Origin: CBDUXP01 sp965371225 [NCBI: uncultured bacterium]
GTDB lineage: Bacteria > Abyssobacteria > SURF-5 > CBDUXP01
Length of the DNA: 64,000 nt
Direction of reading: 5' to 3'
NCBI GenBank assembly: GCA_965371225.1
Contig: CBDUXP010000012.1
Coordinates: 1-64,000 of the forward strand
The notes below the pieces were generated by a model. It was not told the DNA's origin, made no database searches, and was given only the letters and a program-made list of their open reading frames with translations. Both the position numbers and the translations under genes were made by a program. Of the stretch, positions 3,822-13,106 are shown piece by piece. How positions within the stretch are numbered: the stretch's first letter is position 1; every line of letters starts with the position of its first letter.

Positions 3822-5273
3822 CTAGCCCTCTTTCAGGCTCTCGACCACTTCGGTCATCATCTGCTTGCCGTCGCCGAAGAGCATGATCGTGTTGTCCGCG
3901 GCAAACAACGGGTTCGGGATGCCCGCAAAGCCGGGGCTGAGACTCCGCTTCACGACGACCACGGTGCGGGCCTTGTCCACCTCGATGATGGGCATGCCCG
4001 CGATGGCGCTTTGGGGATCGTCCCGGGCCACCGGATTGACCACGTCGTTCGCGCCGAGCACGATGGCCACATCCACTTCGGCCAGCGTGGCGTTGACATC
4101 GTCCATCTCTCGCAACTTCTCGTACGGCACATCGGACTCGGCCAGCAGCACGTTCATGTGCCCCGGCATGCGACCCGCCACCGGGTGGATCCCGTACTCG
4201 ACCTCCACGCCGTGCTCCTCGAGCGTCCGCTCCAACTGCCGCACGGCGTGCTGCGCCTGCGCGACGGCCATGCCGTAACCCGGCACGATAAGCACACGCC
4301 GCACGTCCTCGAGCAGCATGGCCACCTCTTCGGGGGAGGTCGCCTTGATCTTGCCCGCGTACACCTCGTCCGCGGTCGCGGTCTCCGCCGACGGCCCGAG
4401 CGTGCCGAAGATCACGTTCGCGAGCGAGCGGTTCATGGCTTTGCACATGATGTTCGTCAAGATCAGGCCGGACGCCCCCACGAGTGCCCCGGCGATGATC
4501 AGCATCGTGTTGTTGATCACGAACCCCGCGGCACACGCCGCCAACCCCGAATAGGAATTCAACAGGGAAATTACCACGGGCATGTCCGCGCCGCCGATGG
4601 GCAGCACGAGCAGAATGCCGAGTATCGCGGCCACGATGCACAGGATGAAGTACACGAACCACGCTTGCGGCGTGGTCGCAATGTATGCACCGATCAGGAG
4701 GCAGAGGAGGAACAGGCCCCCGGTCACAAACCTGTTGCCGAGGAGCGGGAACTTCGCGTTCTCGATCGCCCGAAGTTCCTGCAGCTTCCCCGCGGCGACG
4801 AGGCTGCCGAAGAACGTCACGGAGCCGATGAGCCCCGTCGCGGCCGTGGCCACCCCGGCGCGCAACGCTTCCGCCTGCGGAATGTCCGCGAATATGGCCA
4901 TACCCGCCACGAGCATGGAGGCCGCGCCGCCGAACCCGTTGAACAGCCCCACCAACTGCGGCATCTGCGTCATCTTCACGTTGATGGCCAAGAACGCGCC
5001 GCACGCGCCGCCCAGCGCCAGAGCCGCGACCAGCATGGGGAGGGATATGATGCCGCCCCACAGTAGCGTCGCGACCACCGCCAGGAGCATGCCGAGGCCG
5101 CTGATCAGGTTGCCCCGCACCGCGGTGCGGGGATGGGTCAGCCCTTTCAACCCATAGATGAAGAGCGCCGCCGCCACCAGATAGGTCATGCGCCGCGGGG
5201 TATCGGCCCCGCCTGCGGCCGCGGTCTCCAGGAATTCGGGCGTCGTCAGCGCCTCGGTCACCTCCTGAAGCAT
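3822..5273 (-). CDS. pntB: NAD(P) transhydrogenase subunit beta
   Basis: The 483-residue membrane subunit of the proton-translocating Re/Si-specific transhydrogenase has about eight to nine transmembrane helices (roughly residues 30 to 280). The soluble NADP(H)-binding domain III follows, marked by VPGYGMAVAQAQHAVRQL, GIHPVAGRMPGHMNVLLAE and VVVKRSLSPGFAGIPNPLF. With the alpha subunits it transfers hydride from NADH to NADP+ using the proton gradient. The start at 5273 lies 3 bp from the pntAB stop and has an AAAGGG site about 8 bases upstream. A second in-frame ATG at 5189 would give the shorter N-terminus common in the family, so the exact start is uncertain. It is the last gene of the pnt operon. 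Confidence 0.95.
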   Translation of the reverse strand: MLQEVTEALTTPEFLETAAAGGADTPRRMTYLVAAALFIYGLKGLTHPRTAVRGNLISGLGMLLAVVATLLWGGIISLPMLVAALALGGACGAFLAINVKMTQMPQLVGLFNGFGGAASMLVAGMAIFADIPQAEALRAGVATAATGLIGSVTFFGSLVAAGKLQELRAIENAKFPLLGNRFVTGGLFLLCLLIGAYIATTPQAWFVYFILCIVAAILGILLVLPIGGADMPVVISLLNSYSGLAACAAGFVINNTMLIIAGALVGASGLILTNIMCKAMNRSLANVIFGTLGPSAETATADEVYAGKIKATSPEEVAMLLEDVRRVLIVPGYGMAVAQAQHAVRQLERTLEEHGVEVEYGIHPVAGRMPGHMNVLLAESDVPYEKLREMDDVNATLAEVDVAIVLGANDVVNPVARDDPQSAIAGMPIIEVDKARTVVVVKRSLSPGFAGIPNPLFAADNTIMLFGDGKQMMTEVVESLKEG

Positions 5274-5276
5274 CGC

Positions 5277-5546
5277 CTAGCCCTTTCGCCGGAACATGGA
5301 CAGCATCCGGTGCGTCACCATGTACCCGCCCACCACGTTGACGGTCGCCAACACGATCGCCCCGAACCCCAGGACGCGGGCGATCGCAGGATCCGGCCAG
5401 AGCAGGGCCCCCACCACGGTGATGCCGGAGATCGCGTTTGAGCCGGACATCAACGGCGTATGCAGCGTTGGCGGCACTTTCGTGATGATCTCGAACCCGA
5501 TGAAGATTGACAGGACGAAAATAGTCAGCCCGGTCGCGACATCCAT
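5277..5546 (-). CDS. pntAB: NAD(P) transhydrogenase subunit alpha, membrane part
   Basis: The gene encodes 89 residues with three hydrophobic helices, matching the C-terminal membrane segment of the alpha subunit. In many bacteria this segment is a separate polypeptide. Recognisable sequence includes FVLSIFIGFEIITKVPPTLHT and the following SGSNAISGI, both standard for this subunit. Its ATG overlaps the TAA stop of pntAA by one base (TAATG), which implies translational coupling. PntB begins 3 bp after its stop. The three genes therefore form one tightly packed operon in the order pntAA, pntAB, pntB. Confidence 0.95.
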   Translation of the reverse strand: MDVATGLTIFVLSIFIGFEIITKVPPTLHTPLMSGSNAISGITVVGALLWPDPAIARVLGFGAIVLATVNVVGGYMVTHRMLSMFRRKG

Positions 5547-6811
5547 TACGCGTCCTCCTCCGACGAATCATCTGCGCTGTCATCCGCAGATTCGTCGTCG
5601 TTTCCGTCCGCCGAATCGTCGTCGGTCGTCTCCGGTTCCGGTTCGGGCGACGTCAGTGGTTCCAGTTCCAGCAACTCGCGAATCCGTGCGTTGACCACGT
5701 CGCCGTCCCGGGTCACGAGGGTGTCGCGGATAATTTCGTCATCAAGATCGATGTGCAGGTCCCCATCCTTCATCAAGTTGAGGAGGTACGTACTCATGTT
5801 CTTCGCGAACATCTGGCTGGCGTGGAATGGAACGGTCGCCGGGAGATTGAGCGGGCCGATGATCGTCACCCCGTTCACCCGCACGGATTCCCCCGGCGTG
5901 GTCAGCTCGCAATTGCCCCCCCGCTCGGCCGCGAGATCGACAATCACCGACCCGGGCCGCATGCCCCGCGCCATCTCCGCGGTCACGAGAATCGGCGCGC
6001 GCCGCCCCGGGATCGCCGCCGTGGTAATGACCACGTCGCTCTCGGCGATCACCTTCGCCATTAACTCGCGCTGTTTCTGGAGAAACTCATCGCTCTGTTC
6101 CTTCGCGTACCCGCCCTTGTCCTCTGCGCCGCCGGTCTCCAAATCCACTTCCACGAATTTGGCGCCGAGACTTTCCACTTGCTCCTTCACGACGGGCCGC
6201 ACGTCATACGCCTCGACGACGGCTCCCATGCGGCGCGCGCTCGCGATGGCCTGCAGGCCGGCCACCCCGGCGCCCATGATGAAGGCCTTGGCCGCGGTCA
6301 CCGTCCCCGCCGCGGTCATCATCATGGGAAACATCTTCGGCAGCGCATCGGCGGCCAGGAGTACGGCCTTGTACCCGGCGATGGTGGCCATGGAGGAGAG
6401 GATGTCCATACTTTGCGCTCGCGTGATCCGCGGCACCAGCTCCAGCGCAAAGCTCGTGACGCCGCGCGCGGCTTCGTCTTTGGCCGCCTCCGGCGCGCCG
6501 AGCGGGTCCGTGGATCCGATCAGCACTTGGCCGGAGCGCATGCGGTCGAGATCGGCGCGCCCGGCTTCCGGGTTGGCGCCAAGCCCGCGGACCTGGACGA
6601 TGATGTCCGCCTGGGCAAACACGGCATCGCGATCGGCGGCGACCGTGCCGCCGCGCTCCTCGTAGTCCGCGTCCGGAAAGCCGGCTTCGGCCCCCGCGCC
6701 CGGTTCCAACAGGACTTGGAGGCCCGCCTTGGCGAGCGGCGGCAGCGAGGCAGGCACGAGGGCGACGCGGCGCTCTCCGCGAAACGTTTCCTTCGGAATT
6801 CCGACGAGCAT
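5546..6811 (-). CDS. pntAA: NAD(P) transhydrogenase subunit alpha, NAD-binding part
   Basis: This 421-residue soluble subunit carries the NAD(H)-binding domain I. It begins MLVGIPKETFRGERRVALVP, the alanine-dehydrogenase/PNT N-terminal signature. Later come the Rossmann segment GAGVAGLQAIASARRMGA (about residues 175-192) and the mobile-loop region YAKEQSDEFLQKQ. The final 45 residues are an acidic Asp/Glu/Ser-rich tail (many E and D from about residue 375), which is longer than I expect for the family and probably disordered. The ATG at 6811 has an AAGGAAGG ribosome binding site 6 bases upstream. It is the first gene of the pnt operon and is divergent from the UspA gene. Confidence 0.95.
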   Translation of the reverse strand: MLVGIPKETFRGERRVALVPASLPPLAKAGLQVLLEPGAGAEAGFPDADYEERGGTVAADRDAVFAQADIIVQVRGLGANPEAGRADLDRMRSGQVLIGSTDPLGAPEAAKDEAARGVTSFALELVPRITRAQSMDILSSMATIAGYKAVLLAADALPKMFPMMMTAAGTVTAAKAFIMGAGVAGLQAIASARRMGAVVEAYDVRPVVKEQVESLGAKFVEVDLETGGAEDKGGYAKEQSDEFLQKQRELMAKVIAESDVVITTAAIPGRRAPILVTAEMARGMRPGSVIVDLAAERGGNCELTTPGESVRVNGVTIIGPLNLPATVPFHASQMFAKNMSTYLLNLMKDGDLHIDLDDEIIRDTLVTRDGDVVNARIRELLELEPLTSPEPEPETTDDDSADGNDDESADDSADDSSEEDA

Positions 6812-7162: not shown

Positions 7163-7672
7163 ATGGTCAAGCATATCCTCCTGGCCGTGGATGATTCGCC
7201 GGCCAGCGCGCGCGTGGCGGAGTACGTGGGCGGCATGCTCCAGATCGACCCCCACGGGCGGCGGAAGCGGGACAACGTCCGCATCACGATCCTGCACATC
7301 TATCCGCGCACCCTTCAGTCGCAATACGCCACGGGCCAGGCCCTGGCGCACGATCTCCACATGCCGCACTATGAGTACGCGCTCGAGGCGGACCACGACG
7401 TGGCGGTCCACGCGCACAAGATTCGCCGGCCGACGGATGACGCGCGGGAGCAGCTCCTGGAGTTGGGCGTGCCGCACAACGCCATCGACGTCCACCATAA
7501 GCAGGCGGGCCCGGCGGCGGATGTGGCGGCCATGATCATCGCCACCGCGAAAAAATACGGGTGCGACACCATTGCGGTCGGCCGGAACCGGGACCAGCGC
7601 TTCCTGCGCACCCACATCAGCGACGCTGTCATCAAGCGCAGCCAAGACCTCGCCGTCTGGGTCGTCCACTAG
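7163..7672 (+). CDS. Universal stress protein (UspA family)
   Basis: The protein is 169 residues with the single-domain UspA fold: a first beta strand ending in the nucleotide-contacting Asp (ILLAVDDSPAS), a middle region rich in charged residues, and a C-terminal strand (CDTIAVGRN) followed by helix and WVVH. ATP-binding members carry a G-x2-G-x9-G-S/T motif here. This one reads VGRNRDQRFLRTHISDAV and lacks the later glycines, so nucleotide binding may be lost. The region between strands 1 and 2 is longer than usual (about 20 extra residues). I chose the ATG at 7163 because GGGAG lies about 6 bases upstream and the motif begins just after it. Its TAG overlaps the stop of the convergent ATP-grasp gene by two bases. 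Confidence 0.85.
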   Translation: MVKHILLAVDDSPASARVAEYVGGMLQIDPHGRRKRDNVRITILHIYPRTLQSQYATGQALAHDLHMPHYEYALEADHDVAVHAHKIRRPTDDAREQLLELGVPHNAIDVHHKQAGPAADVAAMIIATAKKYGCDTIAVGRNRDQRFLRTHISDAVIKRSQDLAVWVVH

Positions 7673-8925
7673 TCCGCGAGCACGAAGACGAGCGCCTGGT
7701 GCGCGGCGCGGAGCGCGGATTCCACTGCATCGGGCGAATCGGCGCGCGCGAAGATGAAGCCCAGGTACAGCCCACCGTCAGGCAGGGGCGTTACGGTCTG
7801 GCCGGGATGCACGGTGATGACCACGTCTTCCACCCCCGGCACGGCGAACGCCGCGGCGCGCCCACGCACCTCTTGCAACACTCCGGCCCCGGGAATGGGC
7901 AGCATCATCACCCCCGCGGGCTGCTGCTCGCGTTGGTACGACGCAACGTCCAGGCCTATGGCGTGACGGATGATCAGTTCTTCCAACGAGACGCCCACCC
8001 CGAACCGCAGGGTGCGTGAGCAGAGGCCGCCGATGGAGCGCGCTGCCACTTCGATGACGCAGGGCCCCTCAGCCGTCAGGCGCAGCTCCGCGTGGATCGG
8101 ACCCTCGCGCAAGCCCAGCGCTTGCGCCGCCTCCGCCACCGCCGCGGTGACAGCGCGCTGCTGCTCGTCAGACTCCCGGGACGGTGTCACGTAAATCGTC
8201 TCCTCGAAGTACGGCCCCTCGAGCGGGTCCGGCTTGTCGAACAGCGCGAGCGCCAGCAGTTCACCTCGCGCCAACAATCCCTCGAACGCCACCTCCCGGC
8301 CCGGCAGGTAATCCTCCACGAGCACGTGCGCGTCGAGACCGGCGTCCGCGTGAGAGCGCGCCTGCCGAATGATGGTGGCAACCCGCGCGAACGCGGCGGT
8401 GAATTCGGCCGGCTCGTCGGCGCGGATGACCCCCTGGCTGGCGGCCAAGCCCCGCGGCTTGAGCACGCAGGGGTACCGCACCTCCCGCGCGACGGCCACC
8501 GCGTCCGCATCGAGCGGCACGAGCCGGTAGCCCGGGACGCGCACGCCGCCCTCCCGCAGCGCCTCGCGCATGCTGAACTTGTCCCGCGCCGCACGCGCAG
8601 CGCTGACATCCGTATGCGGCAGCCCCAGCGCCGCGGCTACCGCCGCCGCGGCCACGGTCGTCCGATCGTCCACCCCCACCACCCCGCACACGGGATGTTC
8701 CCGCGCGAAGGCCACGGCGGCCGCGGCAGCCTGTTCCGGATGCCGGAAGTCGAGGGTCAGGAAGTCAGCCCCATCACTCGCGGCGAGCGCGCTCGCTTCC
8801 TCCGTCGCCACGGTCACCGCCATGTGGACCTGGACGTTCAGGCGCTTCGCCGCCTGCATGAACGCCTCGGCCCGGTACGTCGTGGTGGGGATAAGGAGCA
8901 GCAGCCGCCCTGGGACGTGCGGCAT
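7669..8925 (-). CDS. ATP-grasp domain ligase-like protein
   Basis: The 418-residue protein has the domain order of ATP-grasp carboxylate-amine ligases. An N-terminal Rossmann-like domain includes GVVGVDDRTTVAAAAVAAALGLPHT. The ATP-grasp core follows, with KFSMREALREGGV, PCVLKPRGLAASQGVI, VEDYLPGREVAFEGLL and a metal-binding GPCVIEVAARSIGG near residue 300. It then has a C-terminal beta-rich segment. It should join a carboxylate to an amine or similar nucleophile with ATP hydrolysis, and the substrate is unknown. Longer readings of the frame add about 139 residues that overlap the NfuA-like gene, so I chose the ATG at 8925. It lies 38 bp downstream of the NfuA-like gene on the same strand, which suggests a shared transcript with it and possibly with the radical SAM gene. 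Confidence 0.85.
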   Translation of the reverse strand: MPHVPGRLLLLIPTTTYRAEAFMQAAKRLNVQVHMAVTVATEEASALAASDGADFLTLDFRHPEQAAAAAVAFAREHPVCGVVGVDDRTTVAAAAVAAALGLPHTDVSAARAARDKFSMREALREGGVRVPGYRLVPLDADAVAVAREVRYPCVLKPRGLAASQGVIRADEPAEFTAAFARVATIIRQARSHADAGLDAHVLVEDYLPGREVAFEGLLARGELLALALFDKPDPLEGPYFEETIYVTPSRESDEQQRAVTAAVAEAAQALGLREGPIHAELRLTAEGPCVIEVAARSIGGLCSRTLRFGVGVSLEELIIRHAIGLDVASYQREQQPAGVMMLPIPGAGVLQEVRGRAAAFAVPGVEDVVITVHPGQTVTPLPDGGLYLGFIFARADSPDAVESALRAAHQALVFVLAD

Positions 8926-8963: not shown

Positions 8964-9566
8964 CTACTTCGCCGAGGGGGCGTAGAAGGGGTTCGTGCCC
9001 GCGGCGTGGTCCGTGGTGTCGAGGATGGCGCCCACCTCGGGCACCCCATCGCGAATGGCGCGCTCGACGCCTTGTTTCAGGGTGACGCTCGCCATACCGC
9101 ACCCCTGACAGCCGCCGCCCATCCGGATGTACACCGTGCTGCCCTCGACGTCGAGCAGCTCGATGAAGCCACCGTGCGAGGCGATGCCTGGATTGATCTC
9201 GTTTTCGAGGATGGCTTCGACTTTGGCCCGGATGGCGCCGGAGTCGGCGGCCCGCGTCATGATCTCCTCGGACACGGCGGGCGCACCGGACGCGATGTGC
9301 TCGCGAATCGCGGTACCAATCTGCTTCCCGATGACGGGCCACATCACGTCGGTGGATTTCGTGAGCAGCACCGCGTTCTCGGCAATCTGCACGCTGCCGA
9401 CACCGTCGATGCCGAAGAGGCGCTCGGCCAGGGGCGAGCCCAGCGCGTCGTCATAGCTTGCGAATTGCGCAGAACCACCCTGGAACAACGACCGGTCCAC
9501 GATGAACCGGCAGGCTTGCGGATCCATCTGCGGCTCGCCGGTAATCTTGATGTCCTCTGCGCTCAT
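8964..9566 (-). CDS. NifU/NfuA-like Fe-S cluster protein
   Basis: This 200-residue protein has an N-terminal scaffold-like Nfu_N domain (about residues 10 to 90, including the GIDGVGSVQIAENAVLLTK segment). A C-terminal NifU domain follows, with INPGIASHGGFIELLDVEG and the cluster-binding CxxC (C153, C156, in GGGCQGCGMASVTLKQGVE). It should carry a [4Fe-4S] cluster and deliver it to client enzymes. The ATG at 9566 has a GGAGA ribosome binding site 6 bases upstream. It sits between the radical SAM selenoprotein gene (upstream) and the ATP-grasp gene (downstream) on the same strand. A radical SAM protein is an obvious client, but a direct partnership is inference. Confidence 0.9.
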   Translation of the reverse strand: MSAEDIKITGEPQMDPQACRFIVDRSLFQGGSAQFASYDDALGSPLAERLFGIDGVGSVQIAENAVLLTKSTDVMWPVIGKQIGTAIREHIASGAPAVSEEIMTRAADSGAIRAKVEAILENEINPGIASHGGFIELLDVEGSTVYIRMGGGCQGCGMASVTLKQGVERAIRDGVPEVGAILDTTDHAAGTNPFYAPSAK

Positions 9567-9729: not shown

Positions 9730-11172
9730 CTACGCGGGCACGGCGTCGAGGGGACCCAACTGGTCCTCCGTGGGTTCCGCTCAGCAGAACCAGGATTCGG
9801 TCAGCCGCGGGACCCGCGCCCGGTTGCGGTACACCTCGGGGGAGCTTTCGGTGCGCGCCGGCAGTCCCGCCGCGGCGCGCGCGAGCCGGCGCACGGTCTC
9901 GAAAGTCATCCAGGATTCTTCCCGCGCCGCGGCGGCCACTTCCACCGCCGCAGCAACCTGCCCATGCAGCGCGTCCATGCGCGGGTCCGGGTGGGCCCAG
10001 GCGTAGCTGAACGCCGCCTGGTCCAGCGCACCGAGGTACGGACGGATCGCTTCGTGCGCGAGCAGCGCCGAACCCGGTGGCACCAACAGGCGGATCGCGT
10101 AGTGCACCGGATCCACGGCCGGGATGAGCCCTTCGGCTTCAATGATGTCCAGCATCTGCACGTAGTCGTCCAGGGTCGCCCACGGGGTAAAGGGCACCAG
10201 CGACGGGCGCAAGGTGATCCCCGCTTCGCGGGTGACGGCCAGCGCGGTCGCCACGTCCGCCCGCGTATGGCCCTTCTGCAAGGACGTCAAGACCAGGTCG
10301 CTGAAGGCTTCGACCGCGGATACCACGAAGAGACATCCTGCGTGGGCGAACTCCGTGAAGAGTGCCCGGTGCCGAACGATGTGTTCGATCTTGGCCGTGA
10401 AGTCGAACGTCAGGTCGGGAAATTCCGCGTGCAGGTGCCGCGCGATCTCTCGCGCGTGTCGCGGCCCGTTCAAAAAGTCCGGGTCGCCGAACGTGATGTG
10501 CGTGGCTCCCGCCGCCACCTGCTGCCGGATGTCCTCCAACACGATCGCGCGTGGCACCACGAAGAACCGGCCGTCATACACCGGCGTGACCGGACAGTGC
10601 AGGCAGCGGTGCTTGCACCCGCGGCTCGCTTCCGCGTAGCCCGCCACGGACAGCGTGCCGTCCCGGTCCAGCTTGGCGTACTCCCCGAGCGGGGGCAGGG
10701 CGGCGCGCGCCGGCAGCGCAAAGTCAAGGCGGGCGAGATGGGGAGCCGCAGGCGCGTCGGTCGTCCGCACACCGGGCACGCAGGGAGCCTCGCCCGCGGC
10801 CAATGCCTCCACCAGGGCCACGAGGGGCGCTTCGTACTCACCGCCGATGCACGAGTCCACGCCGTTGGTGAGTAAGTAATCGGCATTCAGGACGGCGTAC
10901 AGGCCATAGAAGCACACGTGGCAGTCGGGGTTCACGGCGCGCACCCGTTCGGCTAATCGCACGCCCAACCGCAACGCCGTGTGCATGGGTACGGCGATAC
11001 CGACGAACCGCGCGTGCGCGACCCAGGCCGGCTCGAAGCAATCCACGGCAATGTCGTGTACCTGGGGCGCGAATCCCGCCCGGGCCAGGAACCCGGCCGG
11101 CCACGCAACGCCCACCGGCTGATGCCCCAGCTCGTAGCAAGACAGGAGCACGACGGCGCCGGGAGCAGTCAT
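9730..11172 (-). CDS. CUAEP-tail radical SAM selenoprotein (in-frame TGA read as Sec)
   Basis: The protein is 480 residues when the TGA at 9781-9783 is read as selenocysteine, or 463 if it is a stop. Residues 1 to 130 form a cobalamin-binding-like Rossmann domain. The radical SAM core begins near residue 175, with the [4Fe-4S] cysteines C186, C190 and C193 in SRGCKHRCLHCP, followed by the ITFGDPDF and FVVSAVEA strands. The tail reads TESWFC-U-AEPTEDQ and ends at TAG (9730-9732). A Cys-Sec-Ala-Glu-Pro tail is the hallmark of a named radical SAM family (CUAEP/CCAEP-tail), in which Cys or Sec occupies the second position. A SECIS-like hairpin follows the TGA. The ATG at 11172 was chosen over an upstream start at 11286 because the added 38 residues look random. 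The reaction is unknown. The nfu-like gene lies 163 bp downstream. Confidence 0.88.
9739..9772 (-). promoter_or_regulatory. Candidate bacterial SECIS hairpin
   Basis: Directly after the TGA of the radical SAM gene the minus strand can fold into a two-part stem. CACGG (9772-9768) pairs with CCGTG (9743-9739). The inner stem GGACC (9766-9762) pairs with GGTCC (9756-9752). The apical loop is AGTTG. The loop starts 19 nucleotides after the TGA and has G at its second position. Both fit the known loose rules for bacterial SECIS elements (apical loop about 16 to 37 nucleotides after UGA, with a G among the first two loop bases). Confidence 0.65.
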
Positions 11173-11348: not shown

Positions 11349-13106
11349 TCAGAACGCCAGGAACGGTCCGGTCACCATCACCCGGGTGGCCACGCCGTCC
11401 AGCGCCGCGGGAATCGCCGCGCGGGTCTCGGGCCGCTCCCGGTCCAGGTAGACCTCGATCACGGGCCGGCCCGCCCCATTGCGGCTGATGCCCGTTCCGA
11501 CGACACCGGCGTGGCTGAACAGGCCGGCCTCGTGGCTCGCCTTGACCGCGCTGGCGTGCGCCAGGGCCGATCCCGAGTTGCCGGGTCCACCAGCGCTGTC
11601 GCTGCCGGATGCTCCCGCCCGGCAGTCGGCATCCGGGGTCGGATCGGTGCCTTTATCAAACGAGTTGGCCGGGGTGCTGCCGTCAAACGCCGGTCCACCG
11701 AGGATGGCTGTGACCGTGGTTACGAACTCGCCATAGGGCGCGTTCTTCGCCGTGTAGGCCGCGACACCGGTGCTGCTCGTGATGGCGCCCGTGCCGGTGC
11801 CCCACGGAGCACCGTCCAAGGTCACGGCGATCTGCACCTCGACGCCGCTCACCGGGGCGCCAAACTCATCCACCACCGAGAGACTGATGTTCAGGTGCTT
11901 GTCCCCGTTCTTGCCGCCTTGGGTGGTGTAGGTCACGCAGTCCACGCTGGCCCCCGTGGGCACCACGGTTTCCACCAGCGCAAAATCGGCCACGGTTCCG
12001 GCACCCTCGTCCACGACTGCCGCCTGTTGTTGCGCGTCGTAGCCGGACGCGGAAGCGGACACCGTACGGGTGCCGGTGGGCACGTCAATAATCACGTATG
12101 TTCCATTCGCAGCCGTGGTAGCCGATTGGCCGGTGTCCGTGCTCACCGTGGCCCCGGCGATGGCACTGTCATCCGCCGCGCTGGTCACGAGGCCCTCGAT
12201 CCACCCCACGACCGGCGGCGCCGCGGGCGCTCCGCTGGCCATCGTGACGCCGAGCAGCGCGAGGACGCGATCAATAGGGTTGGCCACCGTGTAGCTCGAT
12301 CCGCCGGCAAACAGCAGGCCCGTGGCCCGCGGCAGGCCATCGGTCGGATCCACACCATCGGCCTCCACGATCAGGGACCCTGAATCGCCGCCGGCGCTGA
12401 AGGAGCCGTCGGTGATGAGGAACTGGTTCACGAAACGCGCTACGTCGATGGCTGAGCTCCCACAGTCCTTCGAGTAGCCCACGTCGAGCGTCACGTCCAC
12501 GGCTGCCACGACACCGAAGGTGCGACCCGTGGTGCGACCGCTCTTCTGCACCACCTGTCCCAGGGATGGGGCGACGGTGCTCGCACTCAGCACCCCAATA
12601 TCGATGATGCTTCCATCGGTGCGTACCGCATTGGGCACCACCTGAGCGATCGCCGCATCCACCTCGTTGAGGGGCACGCTGCGCCCCTTCGCGAAGCGGA
12701 TCTGAACGTAATCGCTCAGGTGGGCCACCGTGTCGTTCGCGTCCTTGTCACAGACCGGACTCTGGTCGATCAGCCCCGGCTGAATGGCCGCCTCGCCGAG
12801 CGACCCTTTGTTCGTCCGGGCCAGGATGTGGTTGTTGCTCAGGATGTACATGCCATTCGCATTCTGCACCAGCGAGCCCAAGGTACCGCCGCAGCAAAAC
12901 GCTGAGCTGTGGAGGTTAATGCTGCCGCCGCTGGTCCCCAACTCGATCGGGGTGCCCTGCGCGGCCCGATGAGCGGCGCCGCCGTCAGCCCACAGCGCGG
13001 GCGGGAGGGCCACGGCACCGCATACACCCAGTAGTGCGATGACCCAATTTGAATGCCCGGCAGCCCACCGACTCCGCCGGGGCCGGCGTTGCGTAGTCCC
13101 TCTCAT
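11349..13106 (-). CDS. Secreted trypsin-like serine protease with Ig-like C-terminal domains
   Basis: The 585-residue protein starts with a basic N-terminus and a hydrophobic signal sequence (about residues 21-40, cleavage near ALWA-DG). The protease domain (about 55-285) has a plausible catalytic triad: H93 in NNHILAR, D150 in NEVDAAIAQ and S242 in AGGDSGS. It is therefore likely an active S1-like, NAL1-type peptidase. Residues 295-370 look like a carboxypeptidase-regulatory (CarbopepD_reg) beta-sandwich and 380-465 like a Big-1 type domain. The Ser/Gly-rich linker after about 475 leads to a short conserved tail resembling C-termini seen in related NAL1-like proteins. The ATG at 13106 was kept because the signal peptide follows at once. 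It is transcribed away from aconitase. Confidence 0.8.
   Translation of the reverse strand: MRGTTQRRPRRSRWAAGHSNWVIALLGVCGAVALPPALWADGGAAHRAAQGTPIELGTSGGSINLHSSAFCCGGTLGSLVQNANGMYILSNNHILARTNKGSLGEAAIQPGLIDQSPVCDKDANDTVAHLSDYVQIRFAKGRSVPLNEVDAAIAQVVPNAVRTDGSIIDIGVLSASTVAPSLGQVVQKSGRTTGRTFGVVAAVDVTLDVGYSKDCGSSAIDVARFVNQFLITDGSFSAGGDSGSLIVEADGVDPTDGLPRATGLLFAGGSSYTVANPIDRVLALLGVTMASGAPAAPPVVGWIEGLVTSAADDSAIAGATVSTDTGQSATTAANGTYVIIDVPTGTRTVSASASGYDAQQQAAVVDEGAGTVADFALVETVVPTGASVDCVTYTTQGGKNGDKHLNISLSVVDEFGAPVSGVEVQIAVTLDGAPWGTGTGAITSSTGVAAYTAKNAPYGEFVTTVTAILGGPAFDGSTPANSFDKGTDPTPDADCRAGASGSDSAGGPGNSGSALAHASAVKASHEAGLFSHAGVVGTGISRNGAGRPVIEVYLDRERPETRAAIPAALDGVATRVMVTGPFLAF

What the first reader, a model, noticed from the sequence alone, without database searches (positions are those of the whole stretch)
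9730..9783. Probable selenoprotein: radical SAM enzyme with Cys-Sec-Ala-Glu-Pro tail
Seen directly: the frame reads WFC, then TGA, then AEP and 13 more codons to a TAG. The peptide C-U-A-E-P matches exactly the tail that defines the CUAEP/CCAEP radical SAM family, where Cys replaces Sec in some species. A hairpin with loop AGTTG begins 19 nt after the TGA, within the bacterial SECIS range. Treating TGA as a stop would remove the conserved tail. The reaction and substrate of this family are, to my knowledge, not established.
Basis: partly seen in the sequence, partly recalled or inferred. Interest (0 to 1): 0.92.

Follow-up and report, generated by a model that had tools for sequence, protein, structure and literature searches.

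The report
Selenoprotein gene of a radical-SAM enzyme
A bacterial gene for a radical-chemistry enzyme seems to use the UGA stop signal near its end to insert selenocysteine; it belongs to a family that NCBI has already named, so it is real but not new, and what the enzyme makes is still unknown.

Summary
On the minus strand an open frame (11172..9784, 463 aa, CX3CX2C motif) ends ...TESWFC, followed by TGA (9783-9781), GCG GAA CCC, 13 more codons and TAG (9732-9730). NCBIfam NF040546, "CUAEP/CCAEP-tail radical SAM (seleno)protein", scores 689.8 bits (cut-off 500). Of 65 relatives, 63 reach the codon: 40 have TGA, 23 have TGC or TGT. In the 61 read without a pattern filter, Ala-Glu-Pro codons always follow. 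The TGA genes carry a hairpin, mostly 19-20 nt after the TGA with an AGUU-type loop and varied paired stems; the Cys genes mostly lack it. At least one of SelA, SelB or a strong tRNA-Sec is present in 39 of 39 TGA-form genomes and 3 of 23 Cys-form genomes. I judge the codon to be selenocysteine (about 0.95); the host genome is not held, no protein was seen, and few codon swaps are independent. The sister family is ArsL (arsinothricin, tail RCCLKC). Nfu-like and ATP-grasp ligase genes follow, as in many relatives. My guess is an ArsL-like maker of an unusual amino acid, with Cys-Sec as ligand or redox tail. The member is new; the kind is known.

The parts
9784..11172 (-). Open frame of the radical SAM protein up to the in-frame TGA, 463 aa, ATG at 11172-11170 (start chosen by me), last residues TESWFC
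10594..10617 (-). CX3CX2C motif (Cys186, Cys190, Cys193), expected ligands of the radical SAM [4Fe-4S] cluster
   Evidence: sequence; Radical_SAM PF04055 match 183-322
9781..9783 (-). In-frame TGA, the probable selenocysteine codon; TGC or TGT in 23 of the 63 relatives that reach it
9733..9780 (-). 16 codons after the TGA, beginning GCG GAA CCC (Ala Glu Pro codons)
9730..9732 (-). TAG, next in-frame stop
9750..9769 (-). SECIS-like hairpin: GGACC / AGUUG loop / GGUCC plus two outer pairs; loop begins 19 nt after the TGA; -10.9 kcal/mol for the 23-nt piece 9747-9769
8964..9566 (-). Nfu/NifU-like Fe-S carrier (Nfu_N + NifU), 200 aa
   Evidence: relatives in 29 of 65 loci
7669..8925 (-). ATP-grasp ligase with LAL_C2 domain, 418 aa, resembling L-amino acid ligases
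   Evidence: relatives in 44 of 65 loci

Best explanation
The gene encodes a radical SAM selenoprotein of the NCBIfam CUAEP/CCAEP-tail family. UGA at 9783-9781 is most likely decoded as selenocysteine with the help of the hairpin just behind it, giving a C-terminal tail with neighbouring Cys and Sec. Supported by comparison: family, codon swap, hairpin, link with the Sec machinery. Inferred: the actual decoding in this host. Weaker inference (about 0.3): the enzyme works like its sister family ArsL. [quoted passage not shown] The Nfu-like protein next door would supply the Fe-S cluster, and the ATP-grasp ligase would couple the resulting amino acid to another one. The confidence given below is for the selenoprotein part.
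For: NF040546 689.8 bits, cut-off 500. In 63 of 65 relatives the codon is TGA 40, TGC 17, TGT 6; L024 and L058 do not reach it. Without the pattern filter, 61 of 65 can be read (TGA 40, TGC 16, TGT 5) and all 61 continue GCN GAR CCN; these three codons vary only at third positions. At codon +7 (CAG in the window) the third base differs from the commonest in 2% of 41 TGA genes and 48% of 23 Cys genes, so it seems held at RNA level where TGA stands. Hairpin: mean fold energy of +9 to +45 is -14.1 against -5.5 kcal/mol, p 2e-9; stem length p 1e-10 (kinship ignored). Stem pairs 1-7 each show several pair types. SelB over cut-off 35 of 39 TGA genomes against 2 of 23 Cys genomes; SelA 35 of 39 against 3 of 23; tRNA-Sec at 60 bits or more 29 of 39 against 3 of 23; any of the three 39 of 39 against 3 of 23 (Fisher tests). 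TGA ends 8 of the 21 other genes checked in the window, so TGA is an ordinary stop there (Pfam support). Function: ArsL is the next family (313 bits); two ArsL proteins end in KRCCLKC, and both of the two ArsL clusters that I opened, of 16 ArsL-type plasmid hits, also carry an ATP-grasp gene.
Against: The host genome is not held, so its Sec machinery is unknown. Folded alone, the window's hairpin is not clearly better than its shuffles (z from -1.51 to 0.05). Some hairpins are weak when cut short (L042 piece -6.6 kcal/mol), and a few Cys genes fold as well or have a stem (L018 -14.3 kcal/mol; L001 stem of 5). Few independent codon swaps exist: 5 changes on the tree, only 2 pairs on well-supported branches (5 on all), too few for a test. 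Four of 39 TGA genomes have no SelB over cut-off and four no SelA over cut-off (incomplete assemblies are likely but unproven). At Rfam's own tRNA-Sec cut-off the first 50 genomes give 21 of 27 TGA and 6 of 23 Cys, a weaker contrast; that cut-off also passes 5 of 14 controls. The Thermomicrobium plasmid with a TGA gene has no selA or selB match; its chromosome was not searched. For the function: no arsenic gene among the 25 families shown in either neighbour census (lists cut at 25 of 105 and 641), and the window's ATP-grasp is only 22-24% identical to those of the two ArsL clusters.
Confidence: 0.92

Rival explanations
1. The TGA is an ordinary stop: the protein ends at ...WFC with a C-terminal Cys, and what follows is untranslated.
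For: The Thermomicrobium record's gene table ends the gene at its TGA; TGA ends 8 of 21 other genes checked in the window; host machinery unknown; the window's hairpin alone is unremarkable.
Against: Behind the TGA, Ala-Glu-Pro codons with third-position changes only in all 40 TGA relatives and the window, matching the sense codons of the Cys relatives; 39 of 39 TGA genomes hold at least one Sec marker.
Confidence: 0.04
2. The TGA is a sequencing error or a decayed Cys codon in one genome.
For: One sequence of unknown source; TGC and TGA differ by one base.
Against: TGA at the same place in 40 loci of 39 other genomes and in a named strain, with the hairpin found mostly in them.
Confidence: 0.01
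3. The selenoprotein reading is right, but the enzyme is an ordinary class B radical SAM enzyme (methylase or dehydratase type) and the Cys-Sec tail is a redox relay for the active site, unrelated to metalloids. This concerns the chemistry only and is compatible with the best explanation's first part.
For: The model of an intact Cys relative is closest in fold to OxsB, AprD4, TsrM and MgmA; no arsenic genes among the neighbour families shown.
Against: By sequence the sister family is ArsL; B12-binding Pfam domain below cut-off (25.9 against 32.1). The fold evidence does not separate the two, as no ArsL structure was among the 50 rows shown.
Confidence: 0.45

Closest known systems
NCBIfam NF040546, CUAEP/CCAEP-tail radical SAM (seleno)protein (e.g. 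Thermomicrobium roseum DSM 5159, WP_012643191.1)
   Same: Family score well over cut-off; tail codons TGY TGA GCN GAR CCN; 58% identity to the Thermomicrobium protein
   Different: Host phylum of the window not placed; the Thermomicrobium gene has no ATP-grasp or Nfu gene listed within 8 kb (that gene table is incomplete)
ArsL (NF040542, RCCLKC-tail radical SAM protein), arsinothricin biosynthesis
   Same: CX3CX2C motif and similar core; an intact Cys relative (L006) is 38% identical to two ArsL; two neighbouring Cys near the C terminus; ATP-grasp gene nearby in two ArsL clusters
   Different: Score below the ArsL cut-off (313 of 450); tail motif and linker differ; arsenic genes as near ArsL were not seen here
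Radical SAM selenoproteins TIGR04167 and TrsS (NF045646) in the 2026 inventory PMC13188914
   Same: Radical SAM proteins with predicted Sec (passages; first of three parts of section 7)
   Different: Neither family was among the 11 NCBIfam matches of the window protein at E up to 0.001

Membership tests
NF040546 CUAEP/CCAEP-tail radical SAM (seleno)protein | Whole-protein score over the curated cut-off | tested here: met
   689.8 bits, cut-off 500, piece cut at the TGA
NF040546 CUAEP/CCAEP-tail radical SAM (seleno)protein | Tail of Cys, then Cys or TGA, then Ala-Glu-Pro codons (from the family name) | tested here: met
   TGC TGA GCG GAA CCC
Bacterial selenoprotein (bSECIS rules as given in PMC13188914, passages) | G in the first two loop positions, loop 3-9 nt, stem 4-16 bp, spacing 16-37 nt | tested here: met
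   Loop AGUUG, 5-bp upper stem, spacing 19 nt
Bacterial selenoprotein (bSECIS rules as given in PMC13188914, passages) | Hairpin energy at or below -7.5 kcal/mol | tested here: met
   -10.9 kcal/mol; 18 of 200 shuffles fold at least as well
Bacterial selenoprotein | Cys homologues at the TGA position | tested here: met
   23 of 63 relatives TGC/TGT
Bacterial selenoprotein | selA, selB, selC, selD in the host genome | not testable with these tools
   No genome held for the window; SelA, SelB and tRNA-Sec tested in relatives only; SelD not searched
Bacterial selenoprotein | Selenium in the protein | not testable with these tools
   Needs biochemistry
ArsL (NF040542) | Score over cut-off 450 | tested here: not met
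   313.1 bits
ArsL (NF040542) | C-terminal RCCLKC (from the family name) | tested here: not met
   Open frame ends WFC before TGA; two ArsL examples end KRCCLKC
ArsL (NF040542) | Arsenic genes beside it | tested here: inconclusive
   Window neighbours scanned are not ars genes; neighbour census of relatives shows only 25 families
B12-dependent class B radical SAM | B12-binding domain over cut-off | tested here: not met
   PF02310 25.9 bits, cut-off 32.1; fold of a Cys relative is of this class

The most novel reading that the evidence does not exclude
CUAEP enzymes are selenium-dependent cousins of ArsL: the Cys-Sec tail binds a metalloid (arsenic, or selenium itself), the radical SAM core joins it to the aminocarboxypropyl part of SAM, and the neighbouring L-amino acid ligase couples the product into a dipeptide. 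This would be an undescribed class of organometalloid natural products in Rokubacteria, Nitrospirota, Acidobacteria, Planctomycetes and others (record titles).
Probability: 0.2. Interest if true: 0.8.

Novelty: new member of a known kind. Interest (0 to 1): 0.45.

Why it matters
The 2026 inventory of prokaryotic selenoproteins names two radical SAM families, and this one was not found in it by its names nor in the paper library; two papers that may describe it were not held. The Thermomicrobium record ends the gene at the TGA, so the proposed Sec is lost from that annotation. The kinship with ArsL and the recurring ligase neighbour point to a testable product class.

Tried and rejected
Whole-region folding of the window's downstream stretch as a stand-alone SECIS test: uninformative (z -1.06 to 0.05). 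Rfam scan of the window: 0 matches; ARAGORN: 0 tRNA or tmRNA genes. Placing the host by its PntB (29 genomes) and aconitase (30 genomes) proteins among relatives' genomes: best 64% and 67%, both on partial stretches, so the host was not placed. Phages: no match. Solved structures by sequence: none for the rSAM at E 0.01; L-amino acid ligases for the ATP-grasp. tRNA-Sec at Rfam's cut-off was not specific (5 of 14 control genomes over it), so I used 60 bits, chosen after seeing the gap in the list; one search also scored fewer candidates per genome (67) than (150), so it may have missed some. A reading with TGA reassigned throughout was rejected because TGA ends other genes in the window. Haft and Gwadz 2023 and Haft and Tolstoy 2025, cited in the review, were not held, so a description of the family there cannot be excluded. 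My hairpin scan counted no stem for L065 (loop GGC, no GT) and took another stem for L064; the greedy scan took other stems for L017, L055 and L064, and these enter its pair counts.

Full report
What is there. The minus strand carries an open frame from ATG 11172 to 9784 (463 aa) ending TESWFC, then TGA 9783-9781, then 16 codons starting GCG GAA CCC, then TAG 9732-9730. The pattern TGY TGA GCN GAR CCN occurs once in the window, expected 0.01. The protein, cut at the TGA, matches NCBIfam NF040546 'CUAEP/CCAEP-tail radical SAM (seleno)protein' at 689.8 bits (cut-off 500); second is ArsL NF040542 at 313.1 (cut-off 450). Pfam gives Radical_SAM over its cut-off and B12-binding below it.

Relatives. 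One scan of genome contigs gave 65 loci. Two (L024, L058) do not reach the codon. Of the other 63, 40 have TGA, 17 TGC and 6 TGT directly after a Cys codon; in two of these, L044 and L052, the gene is split between frames. The pattern used requires GC at the next codon. Without it, 61 of 65 loci can be read straight from the match end: TGA 40, TGC 16, TGT 5, and all 61 continue GCN GAR CCN. All variation in these three codons is at third positions, as expected of translated sequence. The window and the 40 TGA relatives have 10 to 26 codons to the next in-frame stop. A named strain, Thermomicrobium roseum DSM 5159, has TGT TGA GCG GAG CCG on its plasmid NC_011961.1 and the gene is annotated there as CUAEP/CCAEP-tail radical SAM protein.

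Hairpin. In one search's scan, 40 of 41 TGA genes (window included) have a stem of 5 to 8 pairs with GT in the loop, in 39 of them with the loop at nearly the same place (for L064 the scan took another stem; for L065, whose loop is GGC, it counted none). The 23 Cys genes average 1.7 pairs, longest 5 (p 1e-10). Mean fold energy of +9 to +45 is -14.1 against -5.5 kcal/mol (p 2e-9), though single Cys genes fold well (L018 -14.3). These p-values ignore kinship. The stem letters vary while pairing is kept: for example pair 3 is G-C 29, A-T 6, C-G 4, T-A 2 (pairing was required by the scan, so the variety of pairs is the evidence, and three rows use other stems). The Gln codon at the loop hardly varies at its third base in TGA genes (2% differ) but does in Cys genes (48%). 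The window's hairpin has a 5-bp upper stem, loop AGUUG and a spacing of 19 nt, and meets the bacterial SECIS rules quoted in PMC13188914 (passages); its energy is -10.9 kcal/mol. Taken alone it is not clearly better than shuffles.

Machinery. I sent 63 loci (40 TGA, 23 Cys; 39 and 23 genomes, as L041 and L047 share one). SelB over cut-off: 35 of 39 TGA genomes, 2 of 23 Cys genomes. SelA: 35 of 39 and 3 of 23. tRNA-Sec at 60 bits or more: 29 of 39 and 3 of 23. At least one of the three: 39 of 39 and 3 of 23, Fisher p 2e-13. At Rfam's own cut-off the first 50 genomes give 21 of 27 and 6 of 23, but 5 of 14 controls pass too. SelD was not searched. Kinship weakens the link: the tree needs only 5 changes of codon (shuffles 17.0, none of 500 as low), and only 2 independent pairs lie on well-supported branches, too few for a test. 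The window's host is not held. The Thermomicrobium plasmid has no selA or selB match; its chromosome was not in that record.

Neighbours. Behind the gene lie an Nfu-like protein (9566..8964) and an ATP-grasp protein with LAL_C2 (8925..7669), whose nearest solved relative by sequence is the L-amino acid ligase BL00235 (3vot, E 8.5e-36). Relatives of the ATP-grasp lie in 44 of 65 loci and of the Nfu in 29 of 65 (some loci are cut by contig ends). DUF169 was found in 9 of 102 neighbour frames scanned, chosen from 187 listed. Five other window neighbours (PntA, PntB, Usp, a 585-aa protein, aconitase) have a match in 0 of 65 loci at E 1e-8.

Function. ArsL is proposed to join arsenite to the aminocarboxypropyl group of SAM (PMC8552651, passages). 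An intact Cys relative (L006) is 38% identical to two ArsL proteins, which end in KRCCLKC. Of 17 plasmid hits, 16 are of the ArsL/RCCLKC type; I opened two (Priestia, Alicyclobacillus), and both also carry an ATP-grasp gene, with arsenic genes around. Those ligases are only 22-24% identical to the window's, so this is a parallel, not proof of one pathway. A structure model of L006 with 18 other intact Cys genes (pLDDT 88.8) is nearest to OxsB, AprD4, TsrM and MgmA. I had no coordinates to measure, so whether the tail reaches the active site is open. The ArsL-like chemistry is therefore a lead (about 0.3), not a finding.

Known or new. The family is named in NCBIfam and in a plasmid record. The library held no paper with CUAEP, NF040546 or RCCLKC, and 5 papers with the letters CCAEP whose listed titles and abstract openings are unrelated. 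The main text of the 2026 inventory PMC13188914 gave 0 occurrences of CUAEP, CCAEP or NF040546 at word starts (first of three parts of section 7 read). Two papers by Haft and co-workers that might describe it were not held.

Noticed in passing
L010:4989-7220: The Cys-form gene runs on without a stop into a DUF169 domain (PF02596, 92.1 bits; 266 residues after the CCAEP motif), while L040 and L046 have DUF169 as a separate gene; real fusion or frame error not decided.
   Followed up: partly
L044 about 5001-6429 and L052 about 4071-5479: Two Cys-form genes are split between frames; broken genes or assembly errors. Described only.
   Followed up: no
G010 (L012), G014 (L035), G016 (L044): Three Cys-form genomes hold selA and a strong tRNA-Sec (G010 and G014 also SelB over cut-off), so the Cys form also occurs beside a Sec system.
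   Followed up: no
L018: A Nitrospinota genome carries the Cys form and groups inside a Cys clade of Nitrospirota, while two other Nitrospinota (L026, L064) carry TGA forms: possible gene transfer.
   Followed up: partly
window 11349-13106 (-): 585-aa protein with CarboxypepD_reg and a Big_1 match below cut-off; secreted by the look of its start (by eye); no match in the 65 loci.
   Followed up: no
window 3822-6811 (-): NAD(P) transhydrogenase set: PntA, PNTB_4TM small subunit, PntB; best PntB identity 64% partial, 62% near full length, in 29 genomes searched.
   Followed up: partly
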